From Romanomermis culicivorax (Eukaryota > Nematoda > Enoplea > Mermithida > Mermithidae): a stretch of 64,000 bases of DNA. The notes beneath the pieces are model-generated. The model made no database searches and was not told the origin of the DNA. It was given only the letters and a program-made list of their open reading frames with translations. Of this stretch, positions 19,231-52,308 are shown piece after piece; positions within the stretch are counted from its first letter, which is position 1, and every line of letters starts with the position of its first letter. Made by a program: the position numbers and the translations under genes. The stretch spans positions 310,001-374,000 of the forward strand of contig CAWUHX010000147.1 in NCBI GenBank assembly GCA_963922205.1, in the 5' to 3' direction.

Positions 19231-19243
19231 TGAATCTTATAAA

Positions 19244-21250: not shown

Positions 21251-21260
21251 GATAAAACGA

Positions 21261-23800: not shown

Positions 23801-25300
23801 TGAGAAGCACAACAGAAAGGTGAATTTTGCAGAAAGTATCTTGAGTATATTTTGTATTTAATCAGTTACCAGTTGAGTTTAGAGAAATGCAACATGTGCA
23901 ACTCATGAGTGATGATTATGTGATCAGTGAAAACTGAGAATGAGGATTGGAAACTACAGTCACCTTGTCACAGAAGTTCGTCAATTTCCCCTCATTTGCA
24001 TAATCCAGTTTTTGACGCCTCATCACAGCAGCGGAAGGACGTTTGGACGCCCGCTAGGAGGACGTTTCCACCACCACCACACAATTATCAAGACGCCTCC
24101 AAGGAACCGCAACCGCAGCCACAACAACAACTGCTGCAACAACATGAGACACCGCGTGAACCATTGCCATGCGCTGGAGACCCACTACGAGAAATGGAGG
24201 CCTGCAAAGAATGAGAAACCGTCGAGGTTTTAAAGTCCTTCAAAATTTGGTTCGCCAACCAAGTGAACCCATGATGCAAGGTCCACAACATGTGTTTCAC
24301 GGGCATATGACAACACCCGACAATTCCAGGATGACAGAGTGCAACCATTACTTCGGGACTACACCTATGCCCATTTGCGTTTTTACGCAAATTGATGGAA
24401 CTGTGAGAGACTGGAACAACAAGGTGGACACCAGCACCCATATTAGAGAAACTGGCGGAAAGAAAGAAAAGAAAAAAATATATATATATTTTTATGAAAT
24501 TGTATTTTTGTGAAACCGAAATTCTATTTTTTTTTCATTTAATTTTTTTAGTGAGTAGCCGCCCTAAATAAATTACACCGCTTGATCATCTACCGAGGAA
24601 CTGAAACCACTGAAGAGACAAAAAAAAGAAAGGAATAGGAACAACACAGAAAAGAAAGAGAGACAACTTGAGCATAGGAAAACTGAAACTCAGAAAAAGA
24701 AACTTATGAAGTGATTGAGAAAACAGAATAGGAGTTACGGAAAAAATAAACTCCGAAAGAATCTCCAAAAGAAACTCAACTTGAGGAGATACTGAAAATG
24801 AGATTAGAGACTTTAGAATGAAGAAATTATATTTAGAAGCACATAATTCTGTTTGCATCCCAGGAAATCCGCTCTTAGGGGAGGAAAATGTAAGAAACAT
24901 AGAAACTAAGCTACAGTAACTAACCTGTTTCTTCGTTGACCTCATTGTCCAACTTTCATTTTTCTTCGCATTCATCATCGCCACCTTCCCTTCTTCATAA
25001 GCAACGCTACCTAAATGAATAAAAAACATTAGAAACTTAGAATTAGATAAAATTTGAGATAGTAACTCACTGAGATGTCAGCTCAAATGCTGATTTGCCT
25101 CATTCGATGGAATCCTATGAAGAAAAAGACGACAAAATAAGAAAATAAACTAGAAACTACATTTTAAACATATACTACACGTGAAACTTGCTTTATGGTG
25201 TGTATTATCTTAATCGTTTTTGTCATCCAGATCGTCGTGCTTGTTTGCCTTTGTGTTCGTCACCTGTAAATAGAAACCCGCCAATTTATTGTATATTTTT
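23801..25300. other. G2 tail without integrase; possible LTR start at 24889
   Basis: No integrase motifs. A stretch at 23930-24240 is unusually GC-rich, with CAA/CAG and CCA repeats that read as Gln/Pro or His runs depending on frame; its origin is unknown. 24590-24880 is A-rich and low in complexity. At 24875-24899, GGGGAGGAAAA followed by TGTAAGAAAC looks like a polypurine tract and LTR start. Polinton DNA polymerase homology begins at about 25300. No gene is assigned. Confidence 0.4.
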
Positions 25301-31930: not shown

Positions 31931-32376
31931 GATGCAATTCTTAAAAAATGCTGCATACAAATAAAATGATTCTTGTCCCTCATGATATTGGGCAGAGGGA
32001 GGAACTGGCGACCAATGTAATGTCAAATTTGGACAAAGAGATGAGTGAAATTTCACAAAATAGAACATTGCACTCAGATGCTAAAGTTGTTTTATACAAC
32101 CAGGTTTTACATAGGCACAGACAAGCCGAACACAAATAAACAAAACCATTTGAACTGAAAATAGCTGTACCGAACACCCTTCCTGAGATAAAAAACAATG
32201 ATGCAGAATGTGAAAATTATTCACCAGAGAAGGACATACTGTATCAGAAAACAATGAAAATTGTTCCAAAAAATAGCATAATCAGGCCAAAATGTTGTAT
32301 GACTATGCTACTATTAATCCACATATGGGGTGGTCTGATAAGGGTGAAATGATCATCAGTGGTAACAAGATTACAG

Positions 32377-32783
32377 TGTCAGGGAAGCCCTGTATACATT
32401 ACAGTAAAGACTGTTGATATTATTATTTGACATTGATGAATCGTTTTGAATCGTATCTTTCTACTACGCTTCCTTTAATCAGTTTTACGCCCTGAATTGT
32501 ACATTTCTGTAACGCCTTTTCCTACCGTATTTTGTATTCTCCTATCCAGTTTAGAACTACAGTATCTACGTACATTTTTTTATGCTTAGTTTGATTCATA
32601 TTATTCATCCGTGAAGTTTAACCCACTTTTGATATGTATATAAGCTGTGTATCTTCTTATGTGATAAGTCAGTGTTTAGTCCATATTGTATTTGCCACTA
32701 GTAAAGTAAGTTAGTAAACTTGCTAGCCTTAGTTTCACCTTTGAACAAGAACCTGAGTCACATTCTGCACTTGGGCCGTGACA
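32377..32783 (+). repeat. 5' LTR of G3
   Basis: 407 bp, TGTCAGGGAAGCCCTG to GGGCCGTGACA. The 5' end contains the small hairpin CAGGGAAGCCCTG, also seen at the 5' end of the G4 LTR. A possible TATA sequence (GTATATAAGC) is at about 32636. Confidence 0.95.
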
Positions 32784-32787
32784 AATT

Positions 32788-32805: not shown

Positions 32806-33281
32806 AGGAAAGGAAGAAAGGAAAGGAAGGAATTCCGAAGTCGGAAAGTCAGATTGTTTTTCGGACCAGAGTGTCTGAAAGGGTAGATTAAGTTCGAAGG
32901 TTGATGAAGCTTGCCGTTGATCATTGACCAAAGGGTCTGAGACAAAAGTCTGATTGCAGGTGTTCAAGAAAAAAGGACAGTTAGTCAGAAGTTAGATTAA
33001 GTGGCTTTAGGGAACTTCTCACAACGAAAAGGGTTAGTTACCTGGTGGGTAAAGTTAGTCACTCAACACTGTACTCATCAGATAGATTTGAGCCTTTGTG
33101 TGCTCTTGAGTCAAAGTCAAGTGATAAGTCTCACTTACGGACAGTACTCGGTAGACAGATTTGAGCAAGTGTATGCTCATTTGACTAGAAGGTAGTCGTC
33201 AGATTTGTTGGAAAACAGATACGTAGGTCGAAGTAAGCTTGAGTTAAGCACTTCTGAGTTGTTAATAAGTCTTTTCAAGTT
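32806..33281 (+). other. G3 leader
   Basis: Untranslated leader between primer site and gag. It begins with a GGAAAGGAAGAAAGG purine run. It holds an imperfect direct repeat (CAGATAGATTTGAGC near 33078 and GTAGACAGATTTGAGC near 33150). A TGA at 33255 closes the gag frame upstream, so gag cannot start earlier in this frame. Confidence 0.6.
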
Positions 33282-34634
33282 TTGGGTAATCTGGATTCAT
33301 TATCCAAAGGTAGACAGTCTTCAGTTTCGGATGAATTTCGGAACATAATTGACCAGGCAAAGCTTGAATTAAGCACCCCCAGACAGACAAGAAGTAAGGT
33401 TAGAGATATGGTAGAAGAAGCAAAGGCTTTGGAACGGACAGTTAAGCAAGCTTTTGAAAATATTGCTGCTCCATTAGCAGATAGGCTAGAGCAGTTGAGT
33501 TTGAAAATTGTACAGGGTCAGGATACTCATAATTTAGGGGTCAGAAATTCTCTAATGAGGTTCAATTCAATGATGGCATTTAGGCCGCCAGTACCCTTCT
33601 CAGGTTCATTTGGAGAACCATTGAGCGATTGGGTAGATAGATTGCAGCAGTTCATGACTCTGCAAGGAATAAGCGATTTTGATGATGCACACAAGGTTGC
33701 ATTTTTAGAATCTAATTTGATTGGAAGTGCATTGGCATCTTTCCATGAGTTAAGAAAGAATCCTGGTATTCAAAACACATATGATGGGCTAGTTGCAGGG
33801 TTAAAGGAAATGTACCCAGAAGGTCGGGATAGTGATGTCCACCAGCAGCTCATCTATGACAGAAAGCAAAAAAGGACAGAAAGTGTGACGGAGTACCTAG
33901 ATAAGTTGAGAACGATGGCTAGGTCAGCATACCCGACATTGAGAGAAGATGCTAGGGACCTAATCCTTAAACCGATTTTTATAAGGGGTCTTCAGTCGAA
34001 CATCTATGAAGGATTGAAATACAGTGATTTCCCATCATTGACAGAGGCAGCTAAAGCAGCTAGGTACGCTGAATCTCAGATCTTTCGGGAGGATCTACAA
34101 GTGATACCTCGTCAAAATATTGTTTCTTCAAACAATAACAGGGAAATGGACGATTTGCCCAAAGAGCTGCATGATTTGCGTCAACTAATTGTACAAAAAA
34201 ATAGCAAAAAGAACAATCAGCCACGTTGCTTACGTTGCAAAGGCAACAGTCATGTGACGGCTGATTGCAAAGCACCAGAATGCTACGTTTGTGGCAACCT
34301 TGGTCATATCGCCTGGCATTGCCTGAAAAGACAGAACGAATGGGCCAGTCAGAGACAAGATAGTAAAAAGTTTCAAAGTAGGCCTACCATGCAGGCTCAT
34401 AGGATAGGGCAAACATTTTTTCAGTCAAGGGAGAAACCTTCTGGTGGATCCCCTAGGAGGTCGAATCAAACCAACATAAATGAGCTAGATTACGATGACC
34501 CATTGTTGTCTACTGAAACTGAGGAAAAACAATATGGCCATGAAACATGTCTTGTTGAAGAAATGGAGGACAACAGCAACGTCAAACCCTTATTCAGCTT
34601 TCAGCTAGTAGGAGACGATGAAGAGCCATGGTAG
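33282..34634 (+). CDS. G3 gag
   Basis: 450-codon Gag. The frame opens after TGA 33255 and has no ATG before codon 43; the best-placed first codon is TTG 33282, where G4 has ATG, so the initiator has probably mutated (or is non-AUG). The capsid domain is about residues 100-270 (RPPVPFSGSFGEPLSDW, then MYPEGRDSDVHQQLIYDRKQ). Two CCHC knuckles, CLRCKGNSHVTADC and CYVCGNLGHIAWHC, lie at about residues 314-345. An acidic C-terminus ends at TAG 34632. The frame continues directly into env. Role: particle assembly and RNA packaging. Confidence 0.88.
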   Translation: MGNLDSLSKGRQSSVSDEFRNIIDQAKLELSTPRQTRSKVRDMVEEAKALERTVKQAFENIAAPLADRLEQLSLKIVQGQDTHNLGVRNSLMRFNSMMAFRPPVPFSGSFGEPLSDWVDRLQQFMTLQGISDFDDAHKVAFLESNLIGSALASFHELRKNPGIQNTYDGLVAGLKEMYPEGRDSDVHQQLIYDRKQKRTESVTEYLDKLRTMARSAYPTLREDARDLILKPIFIRGLQSNIYEGLKYSDFPSLTEAAKAARYAESQIFREDLQVIPRQNIVSSNNNREMDDLPKELHDLRQLIVQKNSKKNNQPRCLRCKGNSHVTADCKAPECYVCGNLGHIAWHCLKRQNEWASQRQDSKKFQSRPTMQAHRIGQTFFQSREKPSGGSPRRSNQTNINELDYDDPLLSTETEEKQYGHETCLVEEMEDNSNVKPLFSFQLVGDDEEPW

Positions 34635-37094
34635 GAGCCTCCAAATCTGCCATTGCCACCCAAGGAGGCGTTGGGCCCCTATGAAAACATGAACGAGTTC
34701 ATTGAAAGATTCAATGAACTTGAATTGACTTGGTTTTTCGAGGAGGATCAGCCACTATTGGAGTACAAACCGTACAACCAAGGTGAAACAAAAGGCGTTT
34801 GGCTAGGGGCTGCATCAAAGTTAGCAGCCAAATCTGAACAAGAGAAGGAAGTGATTGACTTTGATTTGGACCAGTTTCATCAAAATTATGCTAGAGAACA
34901 GGAAATAATACTGGCAGACAAAAACTCGGAGGAGTTACTGTTGAAACTAAAAGGATTTGTTACTGGTAGTTTTGGAAGATTCAGCAGTTTTGCAAACAGC
35001 AATAGAACGGATAGTTATAGTGATTTGATCGATTTCAACTTAGAAGAATTCTTCAATGGCTACAACAATGAATATAAAGCCAATGAAAAGTTTTTAAAAA
35101 ATTGTGAGAATAATAGGTCGAAAAGAAAATTTAAATGTGATTTTGATGATTACGAGAATGACAGTTGTTCTTTGAATATAGAACGCAGATTGTGCATTTG
35201 CAATGTCGAATGCCCAACCCATGAAGGCAGAAGAGATCAATCGATCAAAGCAATGAAACCGGCCAAATTTGTGCCAAGTAAAGGAAAGGTAATGCCTGAA
35301 AAAACCAACATTAAGCGTAGGACTGCCAAAGGCGTCAGAATAGAATCGACGATTTCGGAAAACGAATCGATTTCGGACGATGGCAGCCATCACATAGATG
35401 ATGAAGTGAAAAGTATTTTTGCCACAGTTGAATTCATAAGATGTTGGACAGTGATAGTTCTTTTGCAGATTGTGAAGATGATGCGGGCGATGATTAGATC
35501 AGAAGTTGGTGTTGCAAGTGTTGCAATTGTGTTTTTGTTGCTTCTTAGTAAAACTTGCTTCGCTTATCAAATTTGTAGTGTGTCCAAGAGTGGTCATGCT
35601 TTGGACATTCCTAAGACAGTCGAATGCAAGCCCCCTATGAAAGAGGAAAGGAAACCATTTAGGGTGGATGTGAGCATTTTTGTTCCAAGAACTGACCCTC
35701 TGCAAGCCAAAGCATACAAATGTTTTGTCAGAAATAGGAAAATTTGTACTTTCAACGGATTCTTTGGTTCAAAAGGGGTTTTGAATGATGAAACATTGTT
35801 TGAGTCAGTCAGCAAAGAAGCTTGTCAAACAGCTTTTCGAACAAAAGGCTACAGAAATGAAAAACTCATTCAGATGTCTGAAGGATTTTGGAGTACAAAC
35901 AAATCACTTGAGGTGAACTACAAATGGTGTTGTGCGGAAGCATGCCAGAATGTTAACAATTTCATGATTGAGGAAGGACAGGTTGCCTCATTCAATGGAC
36001 ACAACATTAGTACTGACCTTGGTGATTTGGGCGGCTGCCGCGCCATTGATGGCAGCTGTGAGGCACGCGACGGTGTAATCCTTTGGGATGCTGCCGAGTT
36101 TCAGGCCGTATGCCCAGTGATCTATAAAGGAAAATACACGTCAATATTGAGCAACAAGCATGTGATAGTTGATGAGTTACAAGCAGCTTTGGAGTTGAAG
36201 GATCCCTACCCCTACTGCCAAAATCAATTCACAAATGCTCTGTGGACAAGCCAGGGAATAGTCGTGAAAATACACGGGAAGAAATACAAAGTAACCCCGA
36301 AACCCTATTTGATGGGACAGTCAGAAAATGTTAGTGATTATGATGCAACAAATGTGAAACTAAACTATTTGGAATACAAAATAATCGGGTTGGAAAATGA
36401 TAATTTCCGACAAACATGGATGGAACTGTGCCATCACATACAAAGGTATCTAGATTTGATATGGCAGTTTGTACATGTAGATGCAACGTTAAGTGTCAGG
36501 GCACTATTGCAGCGCAATGATATAACAGCAGAGTTCACAGGAGAAGTTTTGACAGTATGGCCCTGTCGGCAAGTAAACATAAGTAAAATTTATGACACCT
36601 ATAAGGTCGGTAATATGTGTTATAAATATTTGCCTGTGCATGTTGATGATAAACTTTTGTTTGTAGTACCTGGTACAGTAGACTTGATAAAAGATAGTCC
36701 TGTGATAGACTGTGATCATCAGACGGCAGGAATTTTTCGAGATGGGGCAGGTTTCAAAACAAAATCTGGTACTGTACAGGTTAGTACGATTCCAATAGAA
36801 CTAATTTGGAAAGGACAAGCGAAACTTTTTCAGTTCAACAGCCCAGCAATTTTCCATGATCAACTAGGAAATTTGCCCATGACATTTTCATCATTAAAGC
36901 ATTATGTACACAAAATGCAAGAAATGGAAGGGATAGTTAAAAATATAGTGAATTATCAGGCAGATATGTCACTACAGCCAGGTACTTTGTATGAAATGCT
37001 CTCTGGAATAGGGGCCGGCATAGAGAAAAGTGCCATAGGCGCAGGATCAGGGCTAGAACATGTAATTGATGCAGAGAGACGAAATATGAAATAA
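34635..37094 (+). CDS. G3 envelope-like glycoprotein, in frame with gag
   Basis: About 820 codons directly after the gag TAG. Residues 1 to about 260 (numbered from 34653) form an acidic cytosolic-type linker with a Cys cluster (CICNVEC). A hydrophobic signal-like run at about 285-303 (VASVAIVFLLLLSKTCFA) is followed by the ectodomain. Landmarks: CFVRNRKICTFNGFFGSKGV, KWCCAEAC (about 424), STDLGDLGGC (about 450), ITAEFTGEVLTVWPC (about 625), YKYLPV, IDCDHQTAG, FQFNSPAIFHD. Candidate N-glycosylation sites include NKS, NIS and NVS. The membrane anchor is encoded just after TAA 37092. It is Cys-rich, unlike the usual Gypsy envelope; it is reminiscent of chuvirus/rhabdovirus-type glycoproteins, but that is unproven. 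Confidence 0.85.
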   Translation, partial: EPPNLPLPPKEALGPYENMNEFIERFNELELTWFFEEDQPLLEYKPYNQGETKGVWLGAASKLAAKSEQEKEVIDFDLDQFHQNYAREQEIILADKNSEELLLKLKGFVTGSFGRFSSFANSNRTDSYSDLIDFNLEEFFNGYNNEYKANEKFLKNCENNRSKRKFKCDFDDYENDSCSLNIERRLCICNVECPTHEGRRDQSIKAMKPAKFVPSKGKVMPEKTNIKRRTAKGVRIESTISENESISDDGSHHIDDEVKSIFATVEFIRCWTVIVLLQIVKMMRAMIRSEVGVASVAIVFLLLLSKTCFAYQICSVSKSGHALDIPKTVECKPPMKEERKPFRVDVSIFVPRTDPLQAKAYKCFVRNRKICTFNGFFGSKGVLNDETLFESVSKEACQTAFRTKGYRNEKLIQMSEGFWSTNKSLEVNYKWCCAEACQNVNNFMIEEGQVASFNGHNISTDLGDLGGCRAIDGSCEARDGVILWDAAEFQAVCPVIYKGKYTSILSNKHVIVDELQAALELKDPYPYCQNQFTNALWTSQGIVVKIHGKKYKVTPKPYLMGQSENVSDYDATNVKLNYLEYKIIGLENDNFRQTWMELCHHIQRYLDLIWQFVHVDATLSVRALLQRNDITAEFTGEVLTVWPCRQVNISKIYDTYKVGNMCYKYLPVHVDDKLLFVVPGTVDLIKDSPVIDCDHQTAGIFRDGAGFKTKSGTVQVSTIPIELIWKGQAKLFQFNSPAIFHDQLGNLPMTFSSLKHYVHKMQEMEGIVKNIVNYQADMSLQPGTLYEMLSGIGAGIEKSAIGAGSGLEHVIDAERRNMK

Positions 37095-38906
37095 GGACTG
37101 AATACTTTACTAATGGGACCAATTCAGTTGATTTTCAATGCACTTGTTGTTGCACTGGTTCTGTTAATCATTGGATTCATATTCTACTCGGTTATCATTA
37201 ATAGATGCCAGAGTGGAGGTTCATATTTACCAGCAATAAATTTTAATCGTACACAAAGCTTACGGGAAAGCTTTGGAAATGCATTGTTAAGATTAAGCCA
37301 AATTAGGGCTAGACAGGAAAGAAGAAATAGGAGAACTACATCCAATGTGAATGATGATCAAAAGGAAGTAGAGTTGACAGAACTTGCTTCCACCAGTCAA
37401 AAGGTAAAAAATAGTGGTACTGTAATGCTAGTTGGTTCAACGAGATGTCTGAGAACTCCTCATATGACGATAATCCTCAATGATAACTTGAAAGCTAGTG
37501 CATTGATCGACACAGGAGCAGTTTTCTCTTTGATCGATGATGATATCATAAGCAGGTTGCCAGGAGTGAAAATTTGTGAAACAACTTTGAGACCCATTGC
37601 AGCTAATGGAACACACATACCAGTTGATGGTTGTGTAGTCGTAACTGTGAGATGCGGAGATGTATTGGAAACTGTAAACATGTACATTCAGAAGAACTGT
37701 TCAGCTGATGTCATCATGGGCACAAATTTTCTGAATAGATTCAAAAATGTTCAATTTAATTGGGCAGACTCAACAGTAACCTTCAAGAAAGAAAGAATTG
37801 ATTGTTATGGAATGGTATATAATCCACCAGTACAAAGAGGAGCAGTGGTGATGGCGCACGACGTCTATATTCCGGAAAGATCTGTAAGAATGGTTTATGG
37901 GTTAGTGTCAGAAATCTATAGAAAGGCTGCTAAGATCATATTTGAACCCAAGAACGTAGGAGATGTGATTTTCGCCAGATCAATTAGTGCAATCCAAAGC
38001 CCACCAATTCCATTACAAGTAATGAATACTCGAAATTGTGGAGTGGCACTCTACAAAGATCAGATAATTGCTGACGTAAAAGTTTTTGCTGATTATGAAC
38101 AAGAAATTGTGAACATGGAATGTTTGAGTAACCATAATAACAAGAAACAATGGATAGAGGAAAATGCAAAAATAGCTAGTGAGCTATCTCTTGAGGAGAG
38201 GAAGGAGATCGTTGATCTCTTATGCAAATATCCGACATTGTATGCGGTTGAGGATAAAGATACAGGTAGAACAAAGTTAGTAAAACACAACATAAAGATG
38301 GGAGACAGTAAGCCAGTCCGAAAATTTCCTTATCGAACATCACCCAAGGAAAAGGAAATTGTAATTGAAGAAGTGAAAAAGTTGATAGGATATGGAGTAA
38401 TTAGACCAAGTACTTATCCATGGTCAACAAATGTTGTGCTTGTCAGGAAGAAAGATGGTTAACATAGAATGTGTATCGATTTTCGTGGATTGAATGAGGT
38501 AACTAAGAAAGATGTTTATCCTCTTCCAAGAATTGATGACATTCTTGATACACTGAATGGTATGAAATATTTTACAATGTTAGATCAAGCAAATGCATAT
38601 TGGTCAATTCCGATTGCAGAAGTAGATAAAGAGAAGACAGCATTCTCAACACCCATAGGCTTGTACGAATTCAACTACTTGCCTTTCGGTTTGTGTAATG
38701 CACCAGCATCTTTTCAGAGACTGGTGGATGTTTTGTTGTCAGGTCTACAATGGCAGACATGTCTAGTGTATTTAGATGACATTTTAACATTTGCTAAAGA
38801 CCATAAGCAAATGGTAGAAAGGTTAACACAAATGCTAGATAGGCTTAGTGAGGGAAACATGAAGCTGAAGTTGAGCAAATGTAAGTTCAGTTACTTAGAG
38901 ACGTAG
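37095..38906 (+). CDS. G3 env anchor, protease and reverse transcriptase
   Basis: Same frame as env. The first residues carry the Env membrane anchor (FNALVVALVLLIIGFIFYSV, about 37131-37190), followed by a basic tail. The aspartic protease has LIDTGAVFSLID (about 37503) and ADVIMGTNFLNRF (about 37708). RT has WSTNVVLVRKKDG, TAA 38460 (G4 has Gln here), CIDFRGLN, motif A as LDQANAYWSIPI, FNYLPFGLCNAPASFQ, and the catalytic VYLDDIL at about 38767-38787. TAG at 38904 lies where other copies have Glu-Cys. Apart from two stops, all RT motifs are intact. No ATG start is needed if it is made as part of a polyprotein. Confidence 0.92.
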
Positions 38907-40982
38907 TATCTGGGTTACAGAGTCTCAGAAGAAGGAATTTTACCAGATAAGAAAAAGCTAGAGGCAATTGAAACAATGAAAGCACCACGAACAGTAAAAG
39001 AAGTGAAATCGTTTCTTGGATTGATTTCCTATTACAGAAGATTCATTTGGAATTGTGCTAAAATCATGGAACCTTTAACAAAATTGTTGAGGAAAAACAT
39101 GAATTTTGAGTGGACGGAAGATTGTCAGAAAGCATTTGATGAATTGAAGCATAAACTTTTGTCTCCTCCATTGCTGAATCATCCAGATTTCAATAAGCCG
39201 TTTATTTTACAAACGGACGCTTCATTGGAAGGTATAGGAGCTATCCTATGTCAGTTGGACAGTGAAGGTAATGAGCATCCAGTAGCCTATGCTAGTAGAG
39301 TACTTCAGAAATCCGAAAAGAATTACCCTATCACAGAGCTAGAGACGTTAGCAGTTGTAGAATTTGCAAAATACTTCCGACCGTATTTGTATGAACACGA
39401 AGTGACAGTGGAAACAGATCACACAGCAGTCAAGGCAGTGTTAGAAAAGGAAAATCCGTCTTCAAGAATTGCTAGATGGGGATTAGCTTTGTCAGGATAC
39501 AAGCTGATAATTAAACCAAGGAAAGGTACCAAGAATCAGAATGCTGATTGCTTGTCAAGGTTGCCAAATCCTTTGGGTAAAGTACATTTTGACATCGAGG
39601 AAAACGATGTGGTAGAGAAAACCATTGCTACAATTACAGAAGGCAAGAGTAATGGCGTAGATTTGAGCCAGATGCAGAAAATGGACCATGAATTACAAGA
39701 AATCATAAAGAAATTGAATGAACATGATGTAATGGATACTGATGAATTTGTGATTGAAAATGAGATACTGTACAAGATTCATGAAGACAGCAAGAAAATC
39801 GTGCCACAAAAGTTGATAACGTTGATTTTACAGTCATATCATGATGATCTATTAGCAGGTCATTACAGTGCAAGGAAAACTTATGTGGAAATAAGTAAGA
39901 GATATTTCTGGGCAGGAATGAGGAAGACTATTTTCAGATTCTGTGATGAATGTAAGTTGTGCCAGATCAATAAATCGGCTAGAAAGAAGATAGTTGCCGA
40001 ATTAAAGCCTATAAAAGTAACAGGACCATTTGAAAGACTAGGCCTAGATTGTATGGGACCTTTTCCATTGACGGAAAGGGGTAATCGATTCATTGTGGTG
40101 TTCATTGATTATTTCACAAAATATGTCGAAGCTTTTGCTACAGAAAACATAACAGCGCATACGATAGCGGAACTGTTTATCAATGAAATTGTTTGTCGGC
40201 ATGGTTGTCCAAAGATCTTACAATCAGACAGAGGGTCAGACTTTGTGTCATTATTGATGACCAAAATAACAGAAATTTGTGATACACAGAAAGTACACAC
40301 TACAGCTTATCATCCAATGGCAAATGGTGAAATAGAAAGAACGAATCAAACATTGGTTGTGCGAATGAGAATGTACGTGAACCATGATCAATCAGATTGG
40401 GATTTGCATGTACCCTTTGCTAAATTTGCAGCAAACACACATGTGAACGAGTCAACTGGCTTCACACCATTTGAATTGATTTTTGGCAGACATCCAGCTT
40501 TACCAATAGATGCTGCTTTGAACTACCAACCACCATTGTATATGATGGATTTGTTAGGATATGAGCAAGAAATCAAGAGACATTTTACGAATGCATTGAC
40601 AGTCATCCAAAGGCAGGTAGAGAATGCGCAAGAAAAGTACAAGTTTCATTATGATAAAAAAACATGTCATGTTACCTACAAAATTGGAGATTGGGTTCTC
40701 AAGGAGTCACAGGTGGTCAGAAGAGGGTTGATTAAAAAGCTGATGCCGATGTATCAAGGTCCATACAGGGTGACAGGCATCGTTCTTCCAAACATCATCA
40801 TGGAATTGGTCGACGATCCATCAGTTTGCGAGGTTATTCATGCCAATCGTATGAAACCATACCGTAAAAGACAATTGGATGGTCTGGAAAGTCAAAATGA
40901 AATAACGAACACACATCCTATTGATCCGAACATCGAACAATCCAATAACGAGGACTTGTCAAACGAGGACGTTTCAAAATAA
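38907..40982 (+). CDS. G3 RNase H and integrase
   Basis: Continues the same frame to a TAA at 40980. RNase H acidic positions are all present: QTDASLEGIG (about 39211), ITELETLAVV, VETDHTAVK and QNADCLSRL (about 39538). Integrase: a zinc module with GHYSARKT and CDECKLCQ (about 39859-39966), then the catalytic acids in LDCMGPF (about 40046), QSDRGSDF (about 40222) and NGEIERTNQTL (about 40324). A GPY module follows (YQGPYRVTGIVLPNIIMEL, about 40753). The tail is acidic, with a repeated NEDLSNEDVS. No chromodomain. This looks catalytically complete. Confidence 0.93.
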   Translation, partial: YLGYRVSEEGILPDKKKLEAIETMKAPRTVKEVKSFLGLISYYRRFIWNCAKIMEPLTKLLRKNMNFEWTEDCQKAFDELKHKLLSPPLLNHPDFNKPFILQTDASLEGIGAILCQLDSEGNEHPVAYASRVLQKSEKNYPITELETLAVVEFAKYFRPYLYEHEVTVETDHTAVKAVLEKENPSSRIARWGLALSGYKLIIKPRKGTKNQNADCLSRLPNPLGKVHFDIEENDVVEKTIATITEGKSNGVDLSQMQKMDHELQEIIKKLNEHDVMDTDEFVIENEILYKIHEDSKKIVPQKLITLILQSYHDDLLAGHYSARKTYVEISKRYFWAGMRKTIFRFCDECKLCQINKSARKKIVAELKPIKVTGPFERLGLDCMGPFPLTERGNRFIVVFIDYFTKYVEAFATENITAHTIAELFINEIVCRHGCPKILQSDRGSDFVSLLMTKITEICDTQKVHTTAYHPMANGEIERTNQTLVVRMRMYVNHDQSDWDLHVPFAKFAANTHVNESTGFTPFELIFGRHPALPIDAALNYQPPLYMMDLLGYEQEIKRHFTNALTVIQRQVENAQEKYKFHYDKKTCHVTYKIGDWVLKESQVVRRGLIKKLMPMYQGPYRVTGIVLPNIIMELVDDPSVCEVIHANRMKPYRKRQLDGLESQNEITNTHPIDPNIEQSNNEDLSNEDVSK

Positions 40983-40991
40983 GGAGCGGCG

Positions 40992-41398
40992 TGTCAGGGA
41001 AGCCCTGTATACATTACAGTAAACACTGTTGATATTATTATTTGGCATTGATGAATCGTTTTGAATCGTATCTTTCTACTACGCTTCCTTTAATCAGTTT
41101 TACGCCCTGAATTGTACATTTCTGTAACGCCTTTTCCTACCGTATTTTGTATTCTCGTATCCTGTTTAGAACTACAGTATCTACGTACATTTTTTTATGC
41201 TTAGTTTGATTCATATTATTCATCCGTGAAGTTTAACCCACTTTTGATATGTATATAAGCTGTGTATCTTCTTATGTGATAAGTCAGTGTTTAGTCCATA
41301 TTGTATTTGCCACCAGTAAAGTAAGTTAGTAAACTTGCTAGCCTTAGTTTCACCTTCAAACAAGAACCCGAGTCACATTCTGCACTTGGGCTGTGACA
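40992..41398 (+). repeat. 3' LTR of G3
   Basis: 407 bp, about 98% identical to 32377-32783. It is preceded by AAGGAGCGGCG (40981-40991), the probable polypurine tract; G4 has AAGGAGGGCCG at the same place. It is followed by the ACAG target copy and then Polinton sequence. Confidence 0.95.
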
Positions 41399-41498
41399 AC
41401 AGGTACAAATATTGTTGATATGATTTCTGTTGTTGTGAGAATGAGTCCAAAGAGGCAACCTGTATTGGGAACTGATGTATTTGTGAAAATTTTGGTTA

Positions 41499-43395: not shown

Positions 43396-43837
43396 TGTCA
43401 CACACTAGATGACAGGCTCCGCTAAGCTACTTAGGAGTTCAGTCCAAGATCACTTCTTTCTGTTTAACTATTTATTAAGTAGCGCAATAGTAAAATAGTC
43501 ACTTTCGAATACAAATTCAAAGTCGAATAAAAAACAAGAGTATGAACATGAACCGAAGTTACAATGAATGACTCCTGCTTATATATTGTTTTCATATCAC
43601 TGATAAGTCAATTACGCAATAAAGTAAAATATTAACTTACCATAAATTTTATATTATGACCTAATTAATTAGTTATGACCCAATTAAAGTTTCACTTGTC
43701 AAACAAAGTACTTCATGATGAAGCATGATGATAAGTTCAAAAATATTCTAAACAAACATCAAAAAATTGCAACTATAGCTTGAGGTGAAAGTCTAGCATT
43801 AGTGATTGTTTTATGATGCAACAGGGTTTCCCTGACA
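43396..43837 (-). repeat. 3' LTR of G4
   Basis: 442 bp. Read on the minus strand it starts TGTCAGGGAAACCCTG, like the G3 LTR. It is preceded (minus strand) by AAGGAGGGCCG (43838-43848), the likely polypurine tract. It matches 52309-52746 with scattered substitutions and one short indel. Confidence 0.93.
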
Positions 43838-43852
43838 CGGCCCTCCTTAATT

Positions 43853-45844
43853 TCAAACATCCTCGTTTGACGATTCATCGGTCAGGTCAATATTCTGGTC
43901 AATTTCTCGCAAAATCATGGGTTGCATTGGTTTCTGGATGATGGCTGGTACATCAGACGACATTTTCACTTCTAGATCATTGAGTGGCGATCCTAGCTTA
44001 ATCATGATCAACTTTGTATTTGCGATCTCTGATGATGGCTCAATTACAACTTTGCAAAACCGTTTTGTACGGTTTACATGTACAGTTTCTATCACCATTG
44101 GTTTATCAACTTGCTGAATTACCACATTTGGTGATCTGACCTCTATTACCCTATATGGTCCCTGGTACAAAGGCATTAATTTCTTAGATAGTCCTTTCCT
44201 GACTATTTGTGATTCTTTCAGTACTAGATCCCCAACTTTATATACAACATCATAAATCCTTTTGTCATACTGTTCCTTGTAACGATCTTGAGATTGCTTT
44301 ATCTGTTCCTGTATTACTGTTAGTGCATCTGTGAAATGATTCTTCACCAGTTCAGCATATGACATCATATCAAATGTATGTAGAGATGGTCGATAGTTCA
44401 ATGCTACATCTGTAGGTAACAAAGGGTTCCTTCCATAAATCAATTCAAATGGAGTAAAACCAGTGGTTTCATTCACATTGATATTAGCTGCAAACTTTGC
44501 AAATGGCACATGGATGTCCCAATCAGATTGATTTGTGTCTGCATACACTCTAATTCTCGTGATCACTGTTTGATTTATACGTTCTACGTCCCTATTTTCC
44601 ATTGGATGATATGCAGTGGTGTGAACTTTTCTCGTATTACATAGTTTGGTGATCTCTGTCATTAATAATGATACAAAATCAGATCCCCTGTCGGATTGCA
44701 ATACATGAGGTGCTCCATGCCTACACACAATCTCTGTTACAAACAATTCAGCTACTGTCTGAGCTGTAATATTTTCAGTTGGAAATGCATCACAATACTT
44801 CGTGAAGTAGTCTACAAAAACAACAATAAAACGATTCCCTTGTTCTGTCCGTGTTAATGGACCCATGCAATCCACTCCCACTCCATCAAATGGACTGGAG
44901 ACAGGATTTATTTTGAGTTCGGCCCTAATTTTCCTCCTTGTTGCTTTATTCACTTGACATGGTGCACATATATTGCAATACATGTACACATCTTTTCTTA
45001 GAGTACTCCAATAATACTTCTGTGAGATTAATTCAAGTGTTTTCTTGGCACTGTAATGACCTGCTAATGGATCATCATGATATGATTCCAGTATTAATTT
45101 TATTAAACTTTCGGGAACTACCAACTTTTTCCTACCATTATTAATTTTATATAACATATGATTTTGAATAATGAATTCATCAGATTGTATGTCTTCAGAT
45201 ATTATCCCTTGCTTTATCACAATTAACTCTTCATCTAGATTTTGCAAATTCACAATATTCAATTCATTTCTATCTGTTAATGCACAAACAATTTTCTTGA
45301 AACAATTTTCATCAACATCAAAGATTAGATTTTCATTTTTGTTTGGCAATCTTGACAAACAATCTGCATTCTGATTCTTTGCCCCTTTTCTAGGTATAAT
45401 ATTCAATTTAACTTCAGCCAATGCCAATCCCCATCTAGCTATTCTAGGTGATGGATTTGGCTTTTGCAGCACTGCTTTTATCGCAGTATGATCTGTCTCC
45501 ACTGTGACTTCATGCTGATACAAGTGCAGCTTGAAGTATTTCACAAATTCTACTACTGCCAATGTTTCTAATTCGGTAATGGGATAATTCCTTCCAGCTG
45601 GTCTCAGCATTCTACTTGCATAAGCTACTGGATGCTCTCTTTGCTCCTCATCGAGTTCACAGAACAATGCTCCAATCCATTCTATCGAAGCATAAGTCTG
45701 CAGTATGAGAGGCTTCGAAAAATCTGGGTGCTTCAGTATAGGTGGATTCAATAAACATGCTTTCAGCAATTGAAAAGCTTCCTCTTGCTTACTTTCCCAC
45801 ACAAAATCTACTATTTTCTTCAGTAATGATGTTAGCAGTTCCAT
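43853..45844 (-). CDS. G4 RNase H and integrase
   Basis: 663-codon open frame, the longest intact one in G4. RNase H: QTYASIEWIGALF, where Tyr replaces the first catalytic Asp found in G3; ITELETLAVV; VETDHTAIK; QNADCLSRL. Integrase: GHYSAKKT, CNICAPCQ, then VDCMGPL, QSDRGSDF and NRDVERINQTV, so the three catalytic acids are kept although Gly is lost in NRDVER. A GPY module (YQGPYRVIEV) and an acidic tail ending DESSNEDV follow. RNase H is likely inactive; integrase looks intact. Confidence 0.9.
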   Translation of the reverse strand: MELLTSLLKKIVDFVWESKQEEAFQLLKACLLNPPILKHPDFSKPLILQTYASIEWIGALFCELDEEQREHPVAYASRMLRPAGRNYPITELETLAVVEFVKYFKLHLYQHEVTVETDHTAIKAVLQKPNPSPRIARWGLALAEVKLNIIPRKGAKNQNADCLSRLPNKNENLIFDVDENCFKKIVCALTDRNELNIVNLQNLDEELIVIKQGIISEDIQSDEFIIQNHMLYKINNGRKKLVVPESLIKLILESYHDDPLAGHYSAKKTLELISQKYYWSTLRKDVYMYCNICAPCQVNKATRRKIRAELKINPVSSPFDGVGVDCMGPLTRTEQGNRFIVVFVDYFTKYCDAFPTENITAQTVAELFVTEIVCRHGAPHVLQSDRGSDFVSLLMTEITKLCNTRKVHTTAYHPMENRDVERINQTVITRIRVYADTNQSDWDIHVPFAKFAANINVNETTGFTPFELIYGRNPLLPTDVALNYRPSLHTFDMMSYAELVKNHFTDALTVIQEQIKQSQDRYKEQYDKRIYDVVYKVGDLVLKESQIVRKGLSKKLMPLYQGPYRVIEVRSPNVVIQQVDKPMVIETVHVNRTKRFCKVVIEPSSEIANTKLIMIKLGSPLNDLEVKMSSDVPAIIQKPMQPMILREIDQNIDLTDESSNEDV

Positions 45845-45860
45845 TTTCGTAGCACAATTA

Positions 45861-47470
45861 TCAATGAATTTTCAGTAATATGAGATTATTCCTAAGAACG
45901 TCCAATTCTTTCACATTTCTAGGTGGATAGTCCAATTCTTTCACATTTCTAGGTGGGTTCAGTTGTGCTATATCTTCTAGCTTTCTTTTATCTGGTGGAA
46001 TACCTTTGTCTGAAATACAATATCCCAGACATTCTGTTTCTAGATAATAGAATTTACATTTGTTTAATCTCAATTTCATATTTCCTTCCTGTAATCTATC
46101 TAACACTAGCTTTAGCCTCTCCAGCATATTTGTCTATGATCTTTTGAAAAGATAAGAATATCATCCAGATACACCAAACAAATTTGCCTCTGTAATCCTG
46201 TCAACAATACGTCCATCAGCCTTTGGAATGATGCAGCTGCATTACATAATCCAAATGGCAAATAATTAAATTGAAAAAGACCAATTGGGCTTGAGAAAGC
46301 AGTCTTGTGCTTATCTTCTTCTGCCATTGGTATCAACCAATAGGCGTTAGCCTGATCCAGTGTTGTAAAGTATTTCATCCCCTTCAATGTATCTAGGATA
46401 TCATCTATTCTAGGTAATAGATACACATCTCTTCTAGTTACCTCATTCAGTCCTCAAAAATCTATGCACATTCTATGTTGACCTGTCTTTTTCTTAACTA
46501 GAACCACGGTTGAAGCATATGCTGATATACTAGGACTAATTACGCCACCTTCTAGTAACTTTTTAACTTCTTGAATAATGATTTCCTTTTCTTTCGGGGA
46601 CATCCTGTATGGAAATTTTTGTACAGGCTTATTGTCAGTTGTTTCTATTCTATGTTCAATAAGTTTCGTCTGTCCAGTGTCCTTTTCATCAATCGCATTC
46701 AGTGCAGGATACTTCACTGGTAGATCAACTATTTCCTTTCTTGCACTTTCATGCAATTCACTTGCTGTATCAATATTCTGTACTATCCATTTTCGATGCT
46801 CAGATCCTTCATAATTATTCAAACATTTCCTTTTCTCATCTAGTGTCCCTTCTGAATATGAATGTACATTTCCAATTCGTGTATCTTTGAATAACGTCAC
46901 TGAGTGTGAATTCCGATTTAGTACTTGTATTGGTACGACTGCTTCATTTACTGAGCTAACTGATTCTGCCAAATAAATACCTTTCTTAGTTCTCAACTGC
47001 TTAGGTTCAAATACAATATATTTCATTTTACCATACATCTCTGGCACAAAACCATCTATCGCCATTATGGATCTGGCAGGTATATTTACAGTTGAGCATA
47101 CAGTGACCGTACTACGTTTTTTTGGTGATTTATACAGCATTCCAGTACATGGTACTCATGATTCCTTGAATCTAATGCTGAATTTGCCCTACTGAACTGA
47201 ATGCTTTTGAATCGGTTCAGAAAATTTGTTCCCAAAATCAATTCAGCAGAACAATTTCGTTGCACATATACTACAATATTTTCATTTACATCATGAAATT
47301 GTACAGTAATCATTGTAACACCAGTGATGGGTATGATTTCTCCATTTGCTGCAATTGGTTTTACACTTGTTTCCATTATGTGTATCTGTGGTATCTTTCT
47401 AACAATACTTTCATCAACCAAAGAAAATACTGCGCCAGTGTCAATTAGTGCTTCTGCATCTACTCAATGA
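45861..47470 (-). pseudogene. G4 protease and reverse transcriptase
   Basis: Read from 47470 downward. The protease region starts near 47450 (ALIDTGAVFSLVDESI spans a frame change), with AELILGTNFLNRF near 47240. RT: TVVLVKKKTGQHRMCIDF (about 46500), LPRIDDILDTLKG, motif A as LDQANAYWLIPM, FNYLPFGLCNAAASFQ, and VYLDDILIFSKDH near 46165. Frame changes lie near 47120, 46440, 46130 and 45850. A 30-bp tandem duplication at 45900-45955 repeats PPRNVKELD. Confidence 0.87.
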
Positions 47471-47765
47471 TTAATGTTTACAGTATACGTGGAGTTCGTA
47501 ATATTTCATTCTCATTTCATAATATAGTTACATCTTTTGCACTTTCTGATCCAGCTGTATTAGTAAATTCTTTCGTTTCCATGCCTTGTTTCATTTCTGG
47601 ACTCGTTTCTTGAATATGTAAATTCTCCCTAGATTCTTTCTTTGTTTTCCATTCTTCTTTTGCAGTGAGGTGAGATAATCTTAGTAATGCATTTCCTAAA
47701 TGTCCTCCATTACTTGGTGCATGAGTGACGGTAACTCTGGGTGTATATGCTCTTGTTCTTTTACA

Positions 47766-49470
47766 TCAGTTTAACATTACCAAATATCCAATATATCCAG
47801 CAATAAGAATGATTATCACTGCTACTAATATATTAAACAATAACTGTAATGGTCTTTTTATTAATGTTCTAATACCAGTCAAACTTTTCTGTTCGGCTAC
47901 AATGATATGTTCCAGTGCATTTCCAGCACCTTCTATTGTGCTTTTTATTCTACTATCTATACCAGCTAATGTCTCATGCACAGCATGTGGTTGTAAAGAT
48001 ATATCTGACTGATAATTAATTATGTTCTTTACTATGTTCCCCAACTTATTTGTTTTGTACACATATTGCTTTAACATTGCTAGAGATGCTGGTACATTCG
48101 CCAACTGATCATGAAATATGGCGGGGCTATTAAACTGGAAAAACTTTGTTTTCCCCTTCCATATTATTTCCAAGGGTACCTTACTAATGTGTATTATGCC
48201 ACTGTTTGTAGTCCAGTTTGACCCCTTTTCGACAATACCCATTGTGTGATGATGACAGTCCACCTCTGGACTGTTATCAATGAGATCATCTCTACCTGGT
48301 AGTATGTACCTTATTTTTCTATCCTCTAGAAGTACTGGCAAATATTTATAGCATACTTCCTCAACTTTATAGTCACTGTACATTTTTACAATATTGACTT
48401 TCCATCATGGCCAAATAGTCAATACTTCACCAGTAAACTCTGCCATGATATCAGTCCTTTTTAAGTATGCCCGAGCTCCTAAAGTGGCATTCAAATGTAA
48501 AAATTTCCAGACCAACTCAAGATAACATTGGACGTGATGGCATAGTTCCATGCACCTCCTTCTAAAATTATCATTTTCAGCTTGTACTAGCTTATACTCC
48601 AACTTCACATTAATTGGGTCATGATTTACTATCTGATCTTTTATTTTCATTGGTTCTGGTTTTGATGTGACTGTAAATTTTTTTCCATGTATTTTTATGA
48701 CTATTCCCTGTGTTGTCTTCAACGCATTCATGAATTCCGTTTTACATTGCTGATAGGGTACTGTCAGTTCCAGAGCTGCTTGAAGCTCATCAATTACTAC
48801 ATGCTTTTTACACAAAATTGAAGTATACTGTCCTTTTAATTGTACTGGACATATATCCATAAAATTTGTTCCATTCCATAGGATTACACCATCATCGGAT
48901 TTTCAGTAGCCCATTGCTGGCTTACAACCCCCGACATCTCCCAGGTAAGTAAATAATGTGTGACTTTCCCATGAAGCTACCTGCCCTTCTTCTATAAATA
49001 GAATTCTTGAAGTTCCACATTTTTCTGAGCAACACTACATATACTTTACTTGTAAAGTTTTATTTGTGGTTCACATGTGCTTTGATTTTTCCATCAGTGT
49101 CAAACCTTCATACTGTTTTAACTCATAGGCTAATTTGCATGCTTCTTTAGTTATTACTTTAATAATTACTGTATCCTTGACTATTCCTTCTGATCCAAAA
49201 AATCCAGTAGAAGTACACACAGTTCTTTCACGAGTAAAACACTTATATGACTCAATGTGTGTAGGTTCAGTCCTAGGGATATACACGCTAATGTTCACTC
49301 CATAGGGCTTTTCTTCATTTTTCATTGGTGGCTTACATTCCACTTTTTGAGGTATTTCTAGAGGATGTCCACTTTTAGATAATCCGCAAATTTTGTAAGC
49401 ATCAGCACCAATATTTTAACAACTATACAAAAATTTAGCAATTAAAACTACACTAATTTTAAAATTCCTA
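47766..49470 (-). pseudogene. G4 envelope-like glycoprotein
   Basis: Env homologue read from about 49470 down. Short hydrophobic leader (about 49465-49420), CKPPMKNEEKPYGVNISVYIP region, GFFGSEGIV (about 49200), then a decayed WCC/DLGD region (48900-49060). Continues with KHVVIDELQAALEL, IMAEFTGEVLTIWP (about 48440), CYKYLPVL, DCHHHTMG and FQFNSPAIFHD (about 48125). The membrane anchor LLFNILVAVIIILIAGYIGY ends the frame at 47766. Here anchor and ectodomain share one ORF. Several stops interrupt the gene. It sits between gag and protease, as in G1-G3. Confidence 0.82.
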
Positions 49471-49474
49471 ATTT

Positions 49475-50310
49475 TCAATTTTGAAAACGCCGTTTTCCAG
49501 TTGTTTCCCCTTCATTCTCCTGAAATTTTATGCATAAGTATTGAGTGATTAATCCTTGCATTCTTGATTGTTTAGTACCATTATTTCCATCAGACTCCGA
49601 TGGGTCTTTTTTGCTGGAGCTGGGTCCTTCATCCGAGCTCTCCTGCCCTGTTGTTTCCTGGAATTTTATGCACAATTTCGGAACCTTCCTTTGAGGCGAT
49701 TTCATTTGGCACCATGCACATCCACGCCCACTGACATCGGTTTGTGTCGTGGCATCTTTTATCACAGTACCTACCTCATTAAAATGTGATACTTTTGTAC
49801 AATAGTTACATCTTTTCTGGTTATCCAAACTATTGTTCTTACCATAGTTTTGTACAAGTTCTTCTAGGTCAAATCCTATTACATCTTCAAGAGGGTCACT
49901 AGCCGGTTCCCTTAGTCCAAACCAAGCATGAAATAACCCTGGAACAAATCCTACTAGTGGCAAATTCCGGTTACTGTAACCAAGTGCTTGATGTGGCACT
50001 ATAATATCTCCTAATTCAGCTGAGTTCATAGAATCTGTTAATTCAAATTCGTAATCTTCCTCATCTGACAATTTTTTGTCCTCTTGTAGCTCATTGCTTG
50101 CCTCAATTTTCTGTCAGGTTCCAAAAATTCTTCAGTCCTACGGATTTCACCTCCTACCATCTCATTACAATAGTACTTATCTGCTTGTTTCCACCATACT
50201 TTGTTTTCGTCTATCTCCCAGGTAATACTCATATTATTGAACTTTTCAATAAGTTCACTCATACTTCCAAATTCTCCAAATTCTTCCTTACTCGAAAAAG
50301 GGATACTTAA
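49475..50310 (-). pseudogene. G4 linker region between gag and env
   Basis: Acidic, Ser/Glu-rich region in two overlapping frames (50262-50038 and 50071-49475). It includes a Cys cluster (CNYCTKVSHF, then GCAWCQMKS). G3 has an equivalent linker of about 260 residues between its Gag knuckles and the Env signal segment, starting FNELELTWFFEEDQ, which aligns with FNNMSITWEIDENK here. Function unknown; it would be the Gag C-terminal or Env cytosolic segment of a polyprotein. The LCIKFQE stretch occurs twice. Confidence 0.6.
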
Positions 50311-50355
50311 TTCATCAGTTCCTAAACTCTCACCATAATCACTGTCACAATGCTG

Positions 50356-51795
50356 CTACCGAAATGAAAAAATGGGGACTACTTTGTCTTTTAATTTTTG
50401 CCGTTCAACTTCATTCTCAATAAAGGTGTATTTTTTCGAAAAATGGTCGATGTCCATGTCTTTGACATCATCTGAAAACTTGCAGGAGTGGCGACCATTC
50501 CTTATTACATTACATTTTATTTCAGGTTCCTTTCTATCAATTCCTGCCAAGAAAGCTTCATCATCACAATCAATATGGTTAAAATTTACCCTCCTCCTGT
50601 CCCCTTGATATGTCCTGTTTGGGCCTTGCTCCCTCCTAGTTTGATTTATAGTTGAACCTTGCCCTATTCTATTTTGATTTCTCGAATTATTACATTGCAA
50701 AGCTGGACAGTTGTCCTTCGTATGGCCAGTTTTGTGGCAATAATTACAATACATCTTTGTGCAGTTTCTGGCCAAGTGGCCGATTTTGCCACAAGCGTAA
50801 CAGGGTAGCCTTCCACAATATTGGGCAATATGCCCCTTTTGGTTGCATCATATGCACGTACTTCCAGCGGGCGACTTTGATTGGTCCCTCCACAATTGGT
50901 TGAGCTTTTTAAGCTGCTCTTTAATTTCACGCAGTTCATCTGTCTTGGGCATTGCCATTCCTGAATTAGCCACATTTATAGCAACAGAATTTTGAAATGA
51001 AACCATGCTTAAATCTTCTCCAAAGATTTGGAATTCTGCATACCTAGCAGCCTTGACTACTTCTGTCAATGTGGGGAAATCCCTATATTTCAGTCCTAGA
51101 TATATATTTCTATTTACACCCCTAATGAAAATTGGTTTTATAATAGTTTCTCTAGCTTCCTCATTTAGATTGGGGTATGCCAACTTAGCTAACTTTTTTA
51201 GTTTATCCAAATATTCCATAACACTTTCATGTGCTATCTGCTTCCTATCATAAATTAATTGCTGACGAACATCACTATCGCATTCATCCGGGTACATATC
51301 CTTAAGTCCCTTCAATAAATCTTTAAACATTTTTCCAATTTCTGGATTCCTTTTTACCTCTTTAAATGAGACTAATGTGCTACCTATCAAGTTTGATTCC
51401 AAAATGGCTACCTTATACGCATCATCAAAGTCATCAATTCCCTGAAATTCCATAAATTGATCTAATTTTTCTGCCCAGTCAGTGATTGATTCACCAAAAG
51501 ATCCTGAGAAGGGAGGGGGTGGCCCAAATGTCATAAACAAATTCAACCAAAACAAGGCATTTCTCAAATTCATATCGTGAGCTCCGTCTGTTTCTTTAAT
51601 TTTTACTTTCAAATCTTCCAAATTTTTTGCTATTGGGGTTGTCAAACCCTCTAGAGCCTTCTTTACCATTTTTTATAGAGCCTTAGCTTCTTCTGACATT
51701 TTTACTTTTCTAGTCTGTATGGGAGTTCCAATGCTTAATCTTGCTTCCTCAATAATCTTACTAAATTCATCGTGTTCTGTCAATTTAGGATCCAT
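50356..51795 (-). pseudogene. G4 gag
   Basis: ATG at 51795 (MDPKLTEHDEF) gives the only clear gag start codon among these elements. A TAA near 51677 falls where G3 has Glu, then the frame is open to 50848. The capsid domain (FGPPPPFSGSFGESITDW, then MYPDECDSDVRQQLIYDRKQ) aligns with G3. Zinc knuckles: one at 50840-50770, damaged by frame change, and CNYCHKTGHTKDNC near 50740. The C-terminus runs to 50356. Confidence 0.85.
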
Positions 51796-52286
51796 TTTTT
51801 TCGTATTCTATTCCCAAAAATCCCTAGTTTCGAATTCCTTTGATTTGATTTTACTTACATCCAAGAAATTATATATCCTCGCTTTCCTTACGTGAACTGC
51901 ACCTTCTTTCACTGTGCTTTCCTTACAAAATTTTCAAAACTTCCAGATAAGGGAACCCTGTTCAAAAATTCCAATAATATTTTCTTTCTTCTTACTGTAC
52001 CTTAATTTAGGAATCTCTGGTTCCTGCTTTTACTAACAACTATCCTTCTCTGTTTTCTAATGAACCCCTGATTACTGATGGCTTCTTACTGTAGCCAATT
52101 ACTTACTACAAATTTCTTTCCTCAAATTTTCTTTTTATTCAATGTTTCCGACCTAACTTTTCTGACAGTTAGTTTATCTTAATTCCTTCCAATTATTTCC
52201 TTATCTAACTTTCAATGCTTCCAATAATTTCCTTACCTAACTTTCTTTCAAAATTGTCCTAATTTCTTTCAATATTACCTTTTGTT

Positions 52287-52303
52287 TTCCAGATTGCCCC
52301 CCA
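52287..52303 (-). promoter_or_regulatory. Primer-binding site of G4, tRNA-Pro-like
   Basis: On the minus strand TGGGGGGCAATCTGGAA follows the 5' LTR after five bases. It matches the G3 site (TGGGGGGTCATCTGGGA) closely, including the six-G run, supporting a shared primer tRNA, probably tRNA-Pro. Confidence 0.5.
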
Positions 52304-52308
52304 AATTT

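What the first reader, a model, noticed from the sequence alone, without database searches (positions are those of the whole stretch)
33282..40982. Gypsy element with envelope between Gag and Pol in one continuous reading frame
Seen: gag, an envelope-like glycoprotein, protease, RT, RNase H and integrase of G3 all lie in the same frame over about 7.7 kb, with four stop codons and no frameshift. G1, G2 and G4 have the same order. Known: retroviruses and envelope-bearing Gypsy elements place env after pol and usually express it from a spliced RNA. Inference: this family may make a Gag-Env-Pol polyprotein, or use stop readthrough. I do not recall this layout being described, but cannot search.
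Basis: partly seen in the sequence, partly recalled or inferred. Interest (0 to 1): 0.88.

Follow-up and report, generated by a model that had tools for sequence, protein, structure and literature searches.

The report
Retroelement with envelope inside Gag-Pol
A family of jumping genetic elements in an invertebrate genome encodes a virus-like envelope protein in the middle of its core protein chain, between the shell and the enzyme parts, instead of at the end as in known retroviruses.

Summary
G3 (LTRs 32376-32784 and 40991-41399) has gag, envelope (PF24664, E 4.5e-12), a membrane anchor, protease, RT, RNase H and integrase in one + frame with four stops. The window lies in an unnamed 359-Mb genome. 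Of 68 scored envelope matches there, 8 sit in open frames of 2480-2578 codons without a stop; fetched, these run from gag through env to integrase, and 7 of the 8 have LTRs identical over the aligned bases. So the single gag-env-pol frame is native and G3's stops fit decay (4 seen, 3.2 expected). Env and the gag-env linker are under purifying selection in this frame. Env and RNase H-integrase trees agree, which points to one uptake of env before the families split. The four full-span frames examined have two hydrophobic places, a signal at the start of env and an anchor at its end. Best reading: a Gag-Env-Pol polyprotein threaded through the membrane like a togavirus structural polyprotein. 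No RNA or protein data exist here. Ten paper searches found no precedent, but the most relevant paper (eLife 108449) is not held.

The parts
32376..32784 (+). G3 5' LTR (TGTCAG...GTGACA); flanks share ACAG
   Evidence: blastn self match, 409 bp, 9 mismatches to the 3' LTR; flanks read
33258..34631 (+). G3 gag: capsid and two CCHC knuckles (34227, 34281); stop-to-stop ORF
   Evidence: PF19259 3.2e-6 (below its curated cut-off), PF03732 3.5e-5; CCHC
34635..35519 (+). G3 gag-env linker, fast evolving, same frame
   Evidence: translation; the linker of L017/L018 has dN/dS 0.24 in this frame
35520..35564 (+). G3 signal-peptide-like hydrophobic segment at the start of env
   Evidence: sequence; a hydrophobic stretch at the same place in 6 of 6 other copies scanned
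35565..37091 (+). G3 env ectodomain, class III-like fusion glycoprotein
   Evidence: PF24664 2.1e-12, PF06208 1.4e-9 on 35520-37091
37125..37199 (+). G3 transmembrane anchor, in the same ORF as the protease
   Evidence: translation; homologous anchor in G1, G2, G4 and in L009, L013, L015, L017, L018, L025
37476..37730 (+). G3 aspartic protease
   Evidence: PF13650 4.2e-8
38463..38903 (+). G3 reverse transcriptase core (RT starts in the ORF before)
   Evidence: PF00078 1e-29
38907..40979 (+). G3 RNase H and integrase
   Evidence: PF17919 1.3e-38, PF17921 5.1e-19, PF00665 3.3e-7
40991..41399 (+). G3 3' LTR
1436..11585 (+). G1: LTRs 1436-2092 and 10930-11585; gag 2761-3748, env 4580-6101, PR-RT 6283-7929, RH-IN 7933-10774; decayed
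   Evidence: tblastn with G3 pieces; LTR 92.1%
17519..23821 (+). G2 fragment: gag 17519-17932, CCHC 18254, env 19433-21071, TM-PR 21084-22639, RT 22652-23068, RH 23087-23821; no LTR pair found
43396..52747 (-). G4: LTRs 52309-52747 (5') and 43396-43838 (3'); gag 51771-50527, env 49400-47880, TM-PR 47876-46481, RT 46477-46035, RH-IN 46028-44006; decayed

Best explanation
A lineage of Ty3/Gypsy-type LTR elements took up a class III-like envelope glycoprotein once, in frame, between nucleocapsid and protease, and has kept it there through the split into at least four families. Shown: the order, the single open frame in several young copies, selection on env, and co-descent with pol. Inferred: the genomic RNA is translated into one Gag-Env-Pol polyprotein. 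The internal signal sends the env part into the ER lumen and the anchor stops transfer. Gag then stays in the cytosol before env, and protease-RT-integrase in the cytosol after it. Signal peptidase frees the N-end of Env, and the element's own protease cuts on the cytosolic side. This would tie Gag, Env and Pol to equal amounts and to one membrane site.
For: Open frames of 2480-2578 aa without stops in 8 of 68 scored env matches; in the fetched stretches L009-L014, L017 and L018 they span gag-env-TM-PR-RT-RH-IN. LTRs are 100% identical in L009-L014 (652-690 bp held) and L017 (894 bp). Pfam names each of five separate pieces of L009 and three of L017. dN/dS L017/L018: env 0.064, gag 0.10, TM-PR 0.051, RT 0.014, RH-IN 0.027; linker 0.24 in frame against 2.3 and 1.5 in the other two. 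The four full-span frames scanned (L009, L013, L017, L018) each have hydrophobic stretches (19-residue mean above 1.6) at two places. The nearest methionine before the signal lies 36 codons (L009, L013), 75 (L015) or 129 (L017, L018) upstream. Env and RH-IN trees are congruent, Spearman 0.94 over 12 copies. Gag-env-TM-PR is in one frame in 4 of 4 copies read of the 11 long-framed ones in a deeper group.
Against: No RNA, protein or particle data. N-glycosylation sequons are denser in the ectodomain than in gag and pol in 3 of 5 copies, in between in L025, sparser in L016. L025 has one in-frame stop between gag and env; its sister copy L030 has an open frame past the matching place, judged by distance. 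All four window copies have a stop near the anchor, at different codons. G3 and L025 have methionines within 14 codons of the signal, and L017 and L018 one inside the hydrophobic stretch. L016 has a strong leader donor-like site (12.6 bits) and L025 one in the gag-env stretch (10.0 bits). Linker motifs tried by pattern are not general: PLFxF-like in 2 of 10 linkers, GFVxG in 1 of 10. Among the youngest pairs, with 4-7 env differences each, env dN/dS is 0.09, 0.37 and 0.07.
Confidence: 0.68

Rival explanations
1. Alternative splicing: the unspliced RNA carries the open frame, but env is removed in frame to give Gag-Pol, or a spliced RNA starts Env-Pol.
For: L016 has a leader donor-like site of 12.6 bits and L025 one of 10.0 bits between gag and the signal. 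L025 and G3 have a methionine close to the signal.
Against: L009 and L017 have no donor-like site above 7 bits in the 500 nt before their frame, and none above 8.0 up to the signal (crude weights from memory, sites not compared by alignment). An Env RNA would still run into Pol, because no stop follows env in the 8 intact frames.
Confidence: 0.22
2. Stop readthrough: the TAG after gag and the TAA before the anchor of G3 are programmed.
For: The first two stops lie near domain borders; L025 has a stop between gag and env; each window copy has a stop near the anchor.
Against: Eight copies have no stop at all. Two of G3's four stops lie inside RT. The stops near the anchor are at four different places. 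The count of four fits decay since insertion.
Confidence: 0.03
3. The elements are dead relics and the env layout a chance insertion that spread with the element, without function in Env.
For: All four window copies are broken.
Against: Env dN/dS is 0.064 between two intact copies, dN in env is 0.35-0.70 with saturated synonymous sites between window copies, and the LTRs of seven copies are identical.
Confidence: 0.04

Closest known systems
Envelope-carrying gypsy elements (errantiviruses) of metazoans, including mosquito ones with type III fusion glycoproteins (passages of PMC13172572; Chary and Hayashi 2025 cited there, not held)
   Same: LTRs, Gypsy-type pol, gag, a viral fusion glycoprotein; type III glycoproteins are already noted in gypsy elements
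   Different: Known members are written as GAG, POL, ENV in those passages, and env last is what I recall; here env lies between nucleocapsid and protease in one frame
Anakin, BEL-Pao element with a chuvirus glycoprotein (PMC7642597, passages and sections 16 and 18 read)
   Same: Capture of a chuvirus-type glycoprotein by an LTR element
   Different: BEL-Pao pol; its gene order was not stated in the text read, the figure key listing the glycoprotein last
TelKA of bdelloid rotifers (PMC5408684, passages)
   Same: LTR element with an env from a negative-strand RNA virus
   Different: Class I paramyxovirus F type, as ORF3 after pol
Togavirus and flavivirus structural polyproteins (recalled, no call)
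   Same: Capsid, then an internal signal, then a glycoprotein, in one translated chain
   Different: No reverse transcriptase or integrase follows in the chain; unrelated replication

Membership tests
Ty3/Gypsy (Metaviridae) | Pol order PR-RT-RH-IN | tested here: met
   Pfam on pieces
Ty3/Gypsy (Metaviridae) | gag with capsid and CCHC knuckles | tested here: met
Ty3/Gypsy (Metaviridae) | LTRs and a short target duplication | tested here: met
   G3 ACAG; 4-bp repeats at 5 of 7 copies read, L015 and L022 unclear
Ty3/Gypsy (Metaviridae) | RT and integrase group with named Gypsy references | tested here: inconclusive
   The RH-IN tree holds mostly unnamed proteins; G1-G4 and six hits form a clade, support 100
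Errantivirus-type enveloped gypsy | env downstream of pol | tested here: not met
   11 nt with the stop between last integrase codon and 3' LTR in G3; 12-34 nt in six copies read; env lies before PR
Anakin / BEL-Pao | BEL-Pao pol | tested here: inconclusive
   No BEL-Pao-specific Pfam model (names recalled) among matches at E 0.01; no BEL-Pao reference was put in a tree
Class III fusion glycoprotein | Sequence kinship with chuvirus, borna or herpes gB fusion proteins | tested here: met
   PF24664 matches 5 of 13 env pieces (best 7.8e-13), PF06208 4 (1.4e-9), PF00606 2 (0.0018); PF24664 2.5e-20 and PF00606 3.6e-6, the latter below its curated cut-off
Class III fusion glycoprotein | Class III fold | not testable with these tools

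The most novel reading that the evidence does not exclude
This is a so far undescribed group of enveloped retroelements that make Gag, Env and Pol as one membrane-threaded polyprotein in fixed 1:1:1 ratio, a way of building an enveloped particle not known for any reverse-transcribing virus, and still active in this animal.
Probability: 0.5. Interest if true: 0.88.

Novelty: new variant of a known kind. Interest (0 to 1): 0.78.

Why it matters
Known retroviruses and enveloped gypsy elements keep Env apart from Gag-Pol, by position and by spliced RNA, and make far more Gag than Pol (recalled). A native single frame with env in the middle raises the questions of how stoichiometry, ER targeting of the enzymes and genome packaging are handled, and shows that envelope capture can happen inside the core polyprotein. 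Young copies make this testable in the living host.

Tried and rejected
Whole-protein search of G3 ORF2 (P0002) found nothing at E 0.001 in 5.8 billion proteins, perhaps because the words come from the first 500 residues, 295 of them linker. A profile of env pieces then found P0124 (54% identity over 57%) and P0125 (55% over 31%) on metagenome contigs that I could not fetch, metagenome scans having cap 0. Scans of viral contigs (5) and genome contigs (2) gave no locus. PDB by sequence: none. PHROGs: none. Rfam and tRNA scans of the window: none.

The search with P0016 was meant as a control to find Gypsy elements without env here; it hit largely the same places as P0009, so no env-less group was found for comparison.

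Rejected: programmed stops, independent env insertion, and chance open frame (see rivals). An idea that relative P0004 carries the env leader after integrase rests on a short resemblance: 3 of 300 shuffles reach the score against the G3 linker, 1 of 300 for G4, 40 and 132 of 300 for G1 and G2. P0004 is the only one of the 120 listed hits with that motif, and none of nine further linkers has it. Left open.

Full report
What was checked. G3 was read as separate ORF pieces. One + frame holds gag (33258-34631), linker plus env (34635-37091), anchor plus protease (37095-38459), RT (38463-38903) and RNase H-integrase (38907-40979), each with Pfam matches. The stops are at 34632, 37092, 38460 and 38904. 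In the same stretch the other five frames have 108-236 stops. The two LTRs differ at 9 of 409 positions. With a transition-weighted model this predicts 3.2 nonsense changes since insertion; 4 are seen. So the stops need no special explanation.

The other window copies. tblastn with G3 pieces gives the same order in G1, G2 and G4, with env at 44-49%, 30-37% and 53% identity. The G2 gag was found only with gag queries from other families. G1, G2 and G4 contain frame changes and stops at places that differ among them, as decay gives. Each window copy has a stop within about 40 codons around the anchor, at four different places. The anchor is seen in all four; the tail after it aligns to G3 in G1 and G4.

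The genome. The window is C147:310001-374000 of an unnamed 359,112,060-bp assembly of 595 contigs. PF24664 scored 68 places of 2320 candidates, so counts are lower bounds. Eight of the 68 lie in open frames of 2480-2578 aa without a stop. In 20 of 20 env is followed by protease, RT and RNase H-integrase; gag is seen upstream in 19 of 20 with the G3 query, and in the last (L025) with other gag queries. One ORF spans everything in 8 of 20: L009-L014, L017, L018. LTRs are identical in L009-L014 (652-690 bp held, the stretch ends inside the 3' LTR) and L017 (894 bp). The repeat pair printed for L018 (94.9%) includes the end of integrase, as a tandem arrangement would give, and was not used. The eight lie on eight different contigs.

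A deeper group. Searches with P0009 and P0016 hit a further group of elements at 37-55% identity, 11 of 43 scored places have open frames of 2370-2703 aa without a stop inside the match. I read 4.3 kb upstream in 4 of these 11 (L031-L034): 4 of 4 have gag, env, anchor and protease in one frame. In L031 the frame opens inside gag, after a stop; in L034 the protease is seen only as an active-site motif. Env is 63-67% identical to L025's in three of the four; L033 is 38% to L025 and 43% to G3.

Selection and descent. Between L017 and L018 dN/dS is 0.064 in env, 0.10 in gag, 0.051 in anchor-protease, 0.014 in RT and 0.027 in RNase H-integrase. Three pairs of the youngest family have too few changes to say much: env 0.09, 0.37, 0.07. 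In the gag-env linker of L017/L018 it is 0.24 in frame, and 2.3 and 1.5 in the other frames, which also hold stops. Between G3 and G1, G2, G4 synonymous sites are saturated except in anchor-protease, and dN in env is 0.35-0.70. The env and RNase H-integrase trees draw the same grouping of the 12 copies at family level: L009 type with L017 type (100 and 100), G1 beside L015/L016 (support not printed), G3 with G4 (100 in RH-IN; in env 100 together with P0124), G2 apart with or next to L025 (env was rooted on G2). Path distances correlate at 0.94 (distances are not independent, so its p value means little). The metagenome hits P0004-P0006 fall inside the clade; their env state is unknown.

Topology. 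The four frames examined that span gag to integrase (L009, L013, L017, L018), and two partial ones (L015, L025), each show hydrophobic stretches at two places: a signal-like one at the start of env and an anchor at its end. This puts Gag and Pol on the cytosolic side if the chain is made. The nearest methionine before the signal is 36, 75 or 129 codons away in L009/L013, L015 and L017/L018; L025 and G3 have one within 14. Against a simple picture, sequons are densest in the ectodomain in only 3 of 5 copies.

Splicing. A crude scan (weights from memory, no alignment of sites) gave strong donor-like sites in L016 (leader, 12.6 bits) and L025 (10.0 bits, between gag and the signal), and none above 8.0 in L009, L017 and G3. 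Splicing is not excluded.

Known work. Ten paper searches were answered; one search was malformed. PMC10084718 (passages) states no clear evidence of Jingchuvirales glycoprotein capture by Gypsy elements. PMC13172572 (passages) notes gypsy elements with type III fusion glycoproteins and cites Chary and Hayashi 2025, eLife 108449, with 289 elements; that paper is not held, so the layout could already be described there. No passage seen describes env between gag and pol in one frame. Also seen: PMC12440569 (abstract, passages), PMC7642597 (passages, sections 16 and 18), PMC5408684, PMC8672886, PMC2577118, PMC11089739 (passages). For novelty I therefore claim a new variant, not a new kind.

Host. 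A COX1 copy on C117 reads through with the invertebrate mitochondrial code (AGR serine, AAA lysine, TGA tryptophan), so the host is most likely an invertebrate, phylum unknown.

Noticed in passing
P0004 (protein hit, about residues 748-767): A relative of G3's pol has, after integrase, a short stretch like the G3 and G4 gag-env linker (GFVxGxF). It may mean that the linker or env block lies after pol there, or chance.
   Followed up: partly
G000:C180:404, 8769, 17134; G000:C293:388089, 395546, 402999; L018:1-782: Equal spacing of matches (8365 and about 7455 bp) suggests head-to-tail tandem copies sharing LTRs.
   Followed up: no
window 3-527, strand -: Fragment of protease-RT of a further related element (37-45% identity to G3) cut by the window edge.
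   Followed up: no
window 32785-32804; L017, L019, L026 after the 5' LTR: The stretch after the 5' LTR differs between families (TTTGGGGGGTCATC in G3, TTTTGGTGACC in the L017 type), so primers may differ; not matched to tRNAs.
   Followed up: no
G000:C117:992573-993922 (L035): COX1 frame of 519 codons, open in the invertebrate mitochondrial code, on a contig over 990 kb: a nuclear insert of mitochondrial DNA or an assembly join.
   Followed up: partly
window 24586-25077, 25529-26053 (-), 41487-42047, 42933-43412 (+): ORFs of 159-186 aa without Pfam match at E 0.01.
   Followed up: no
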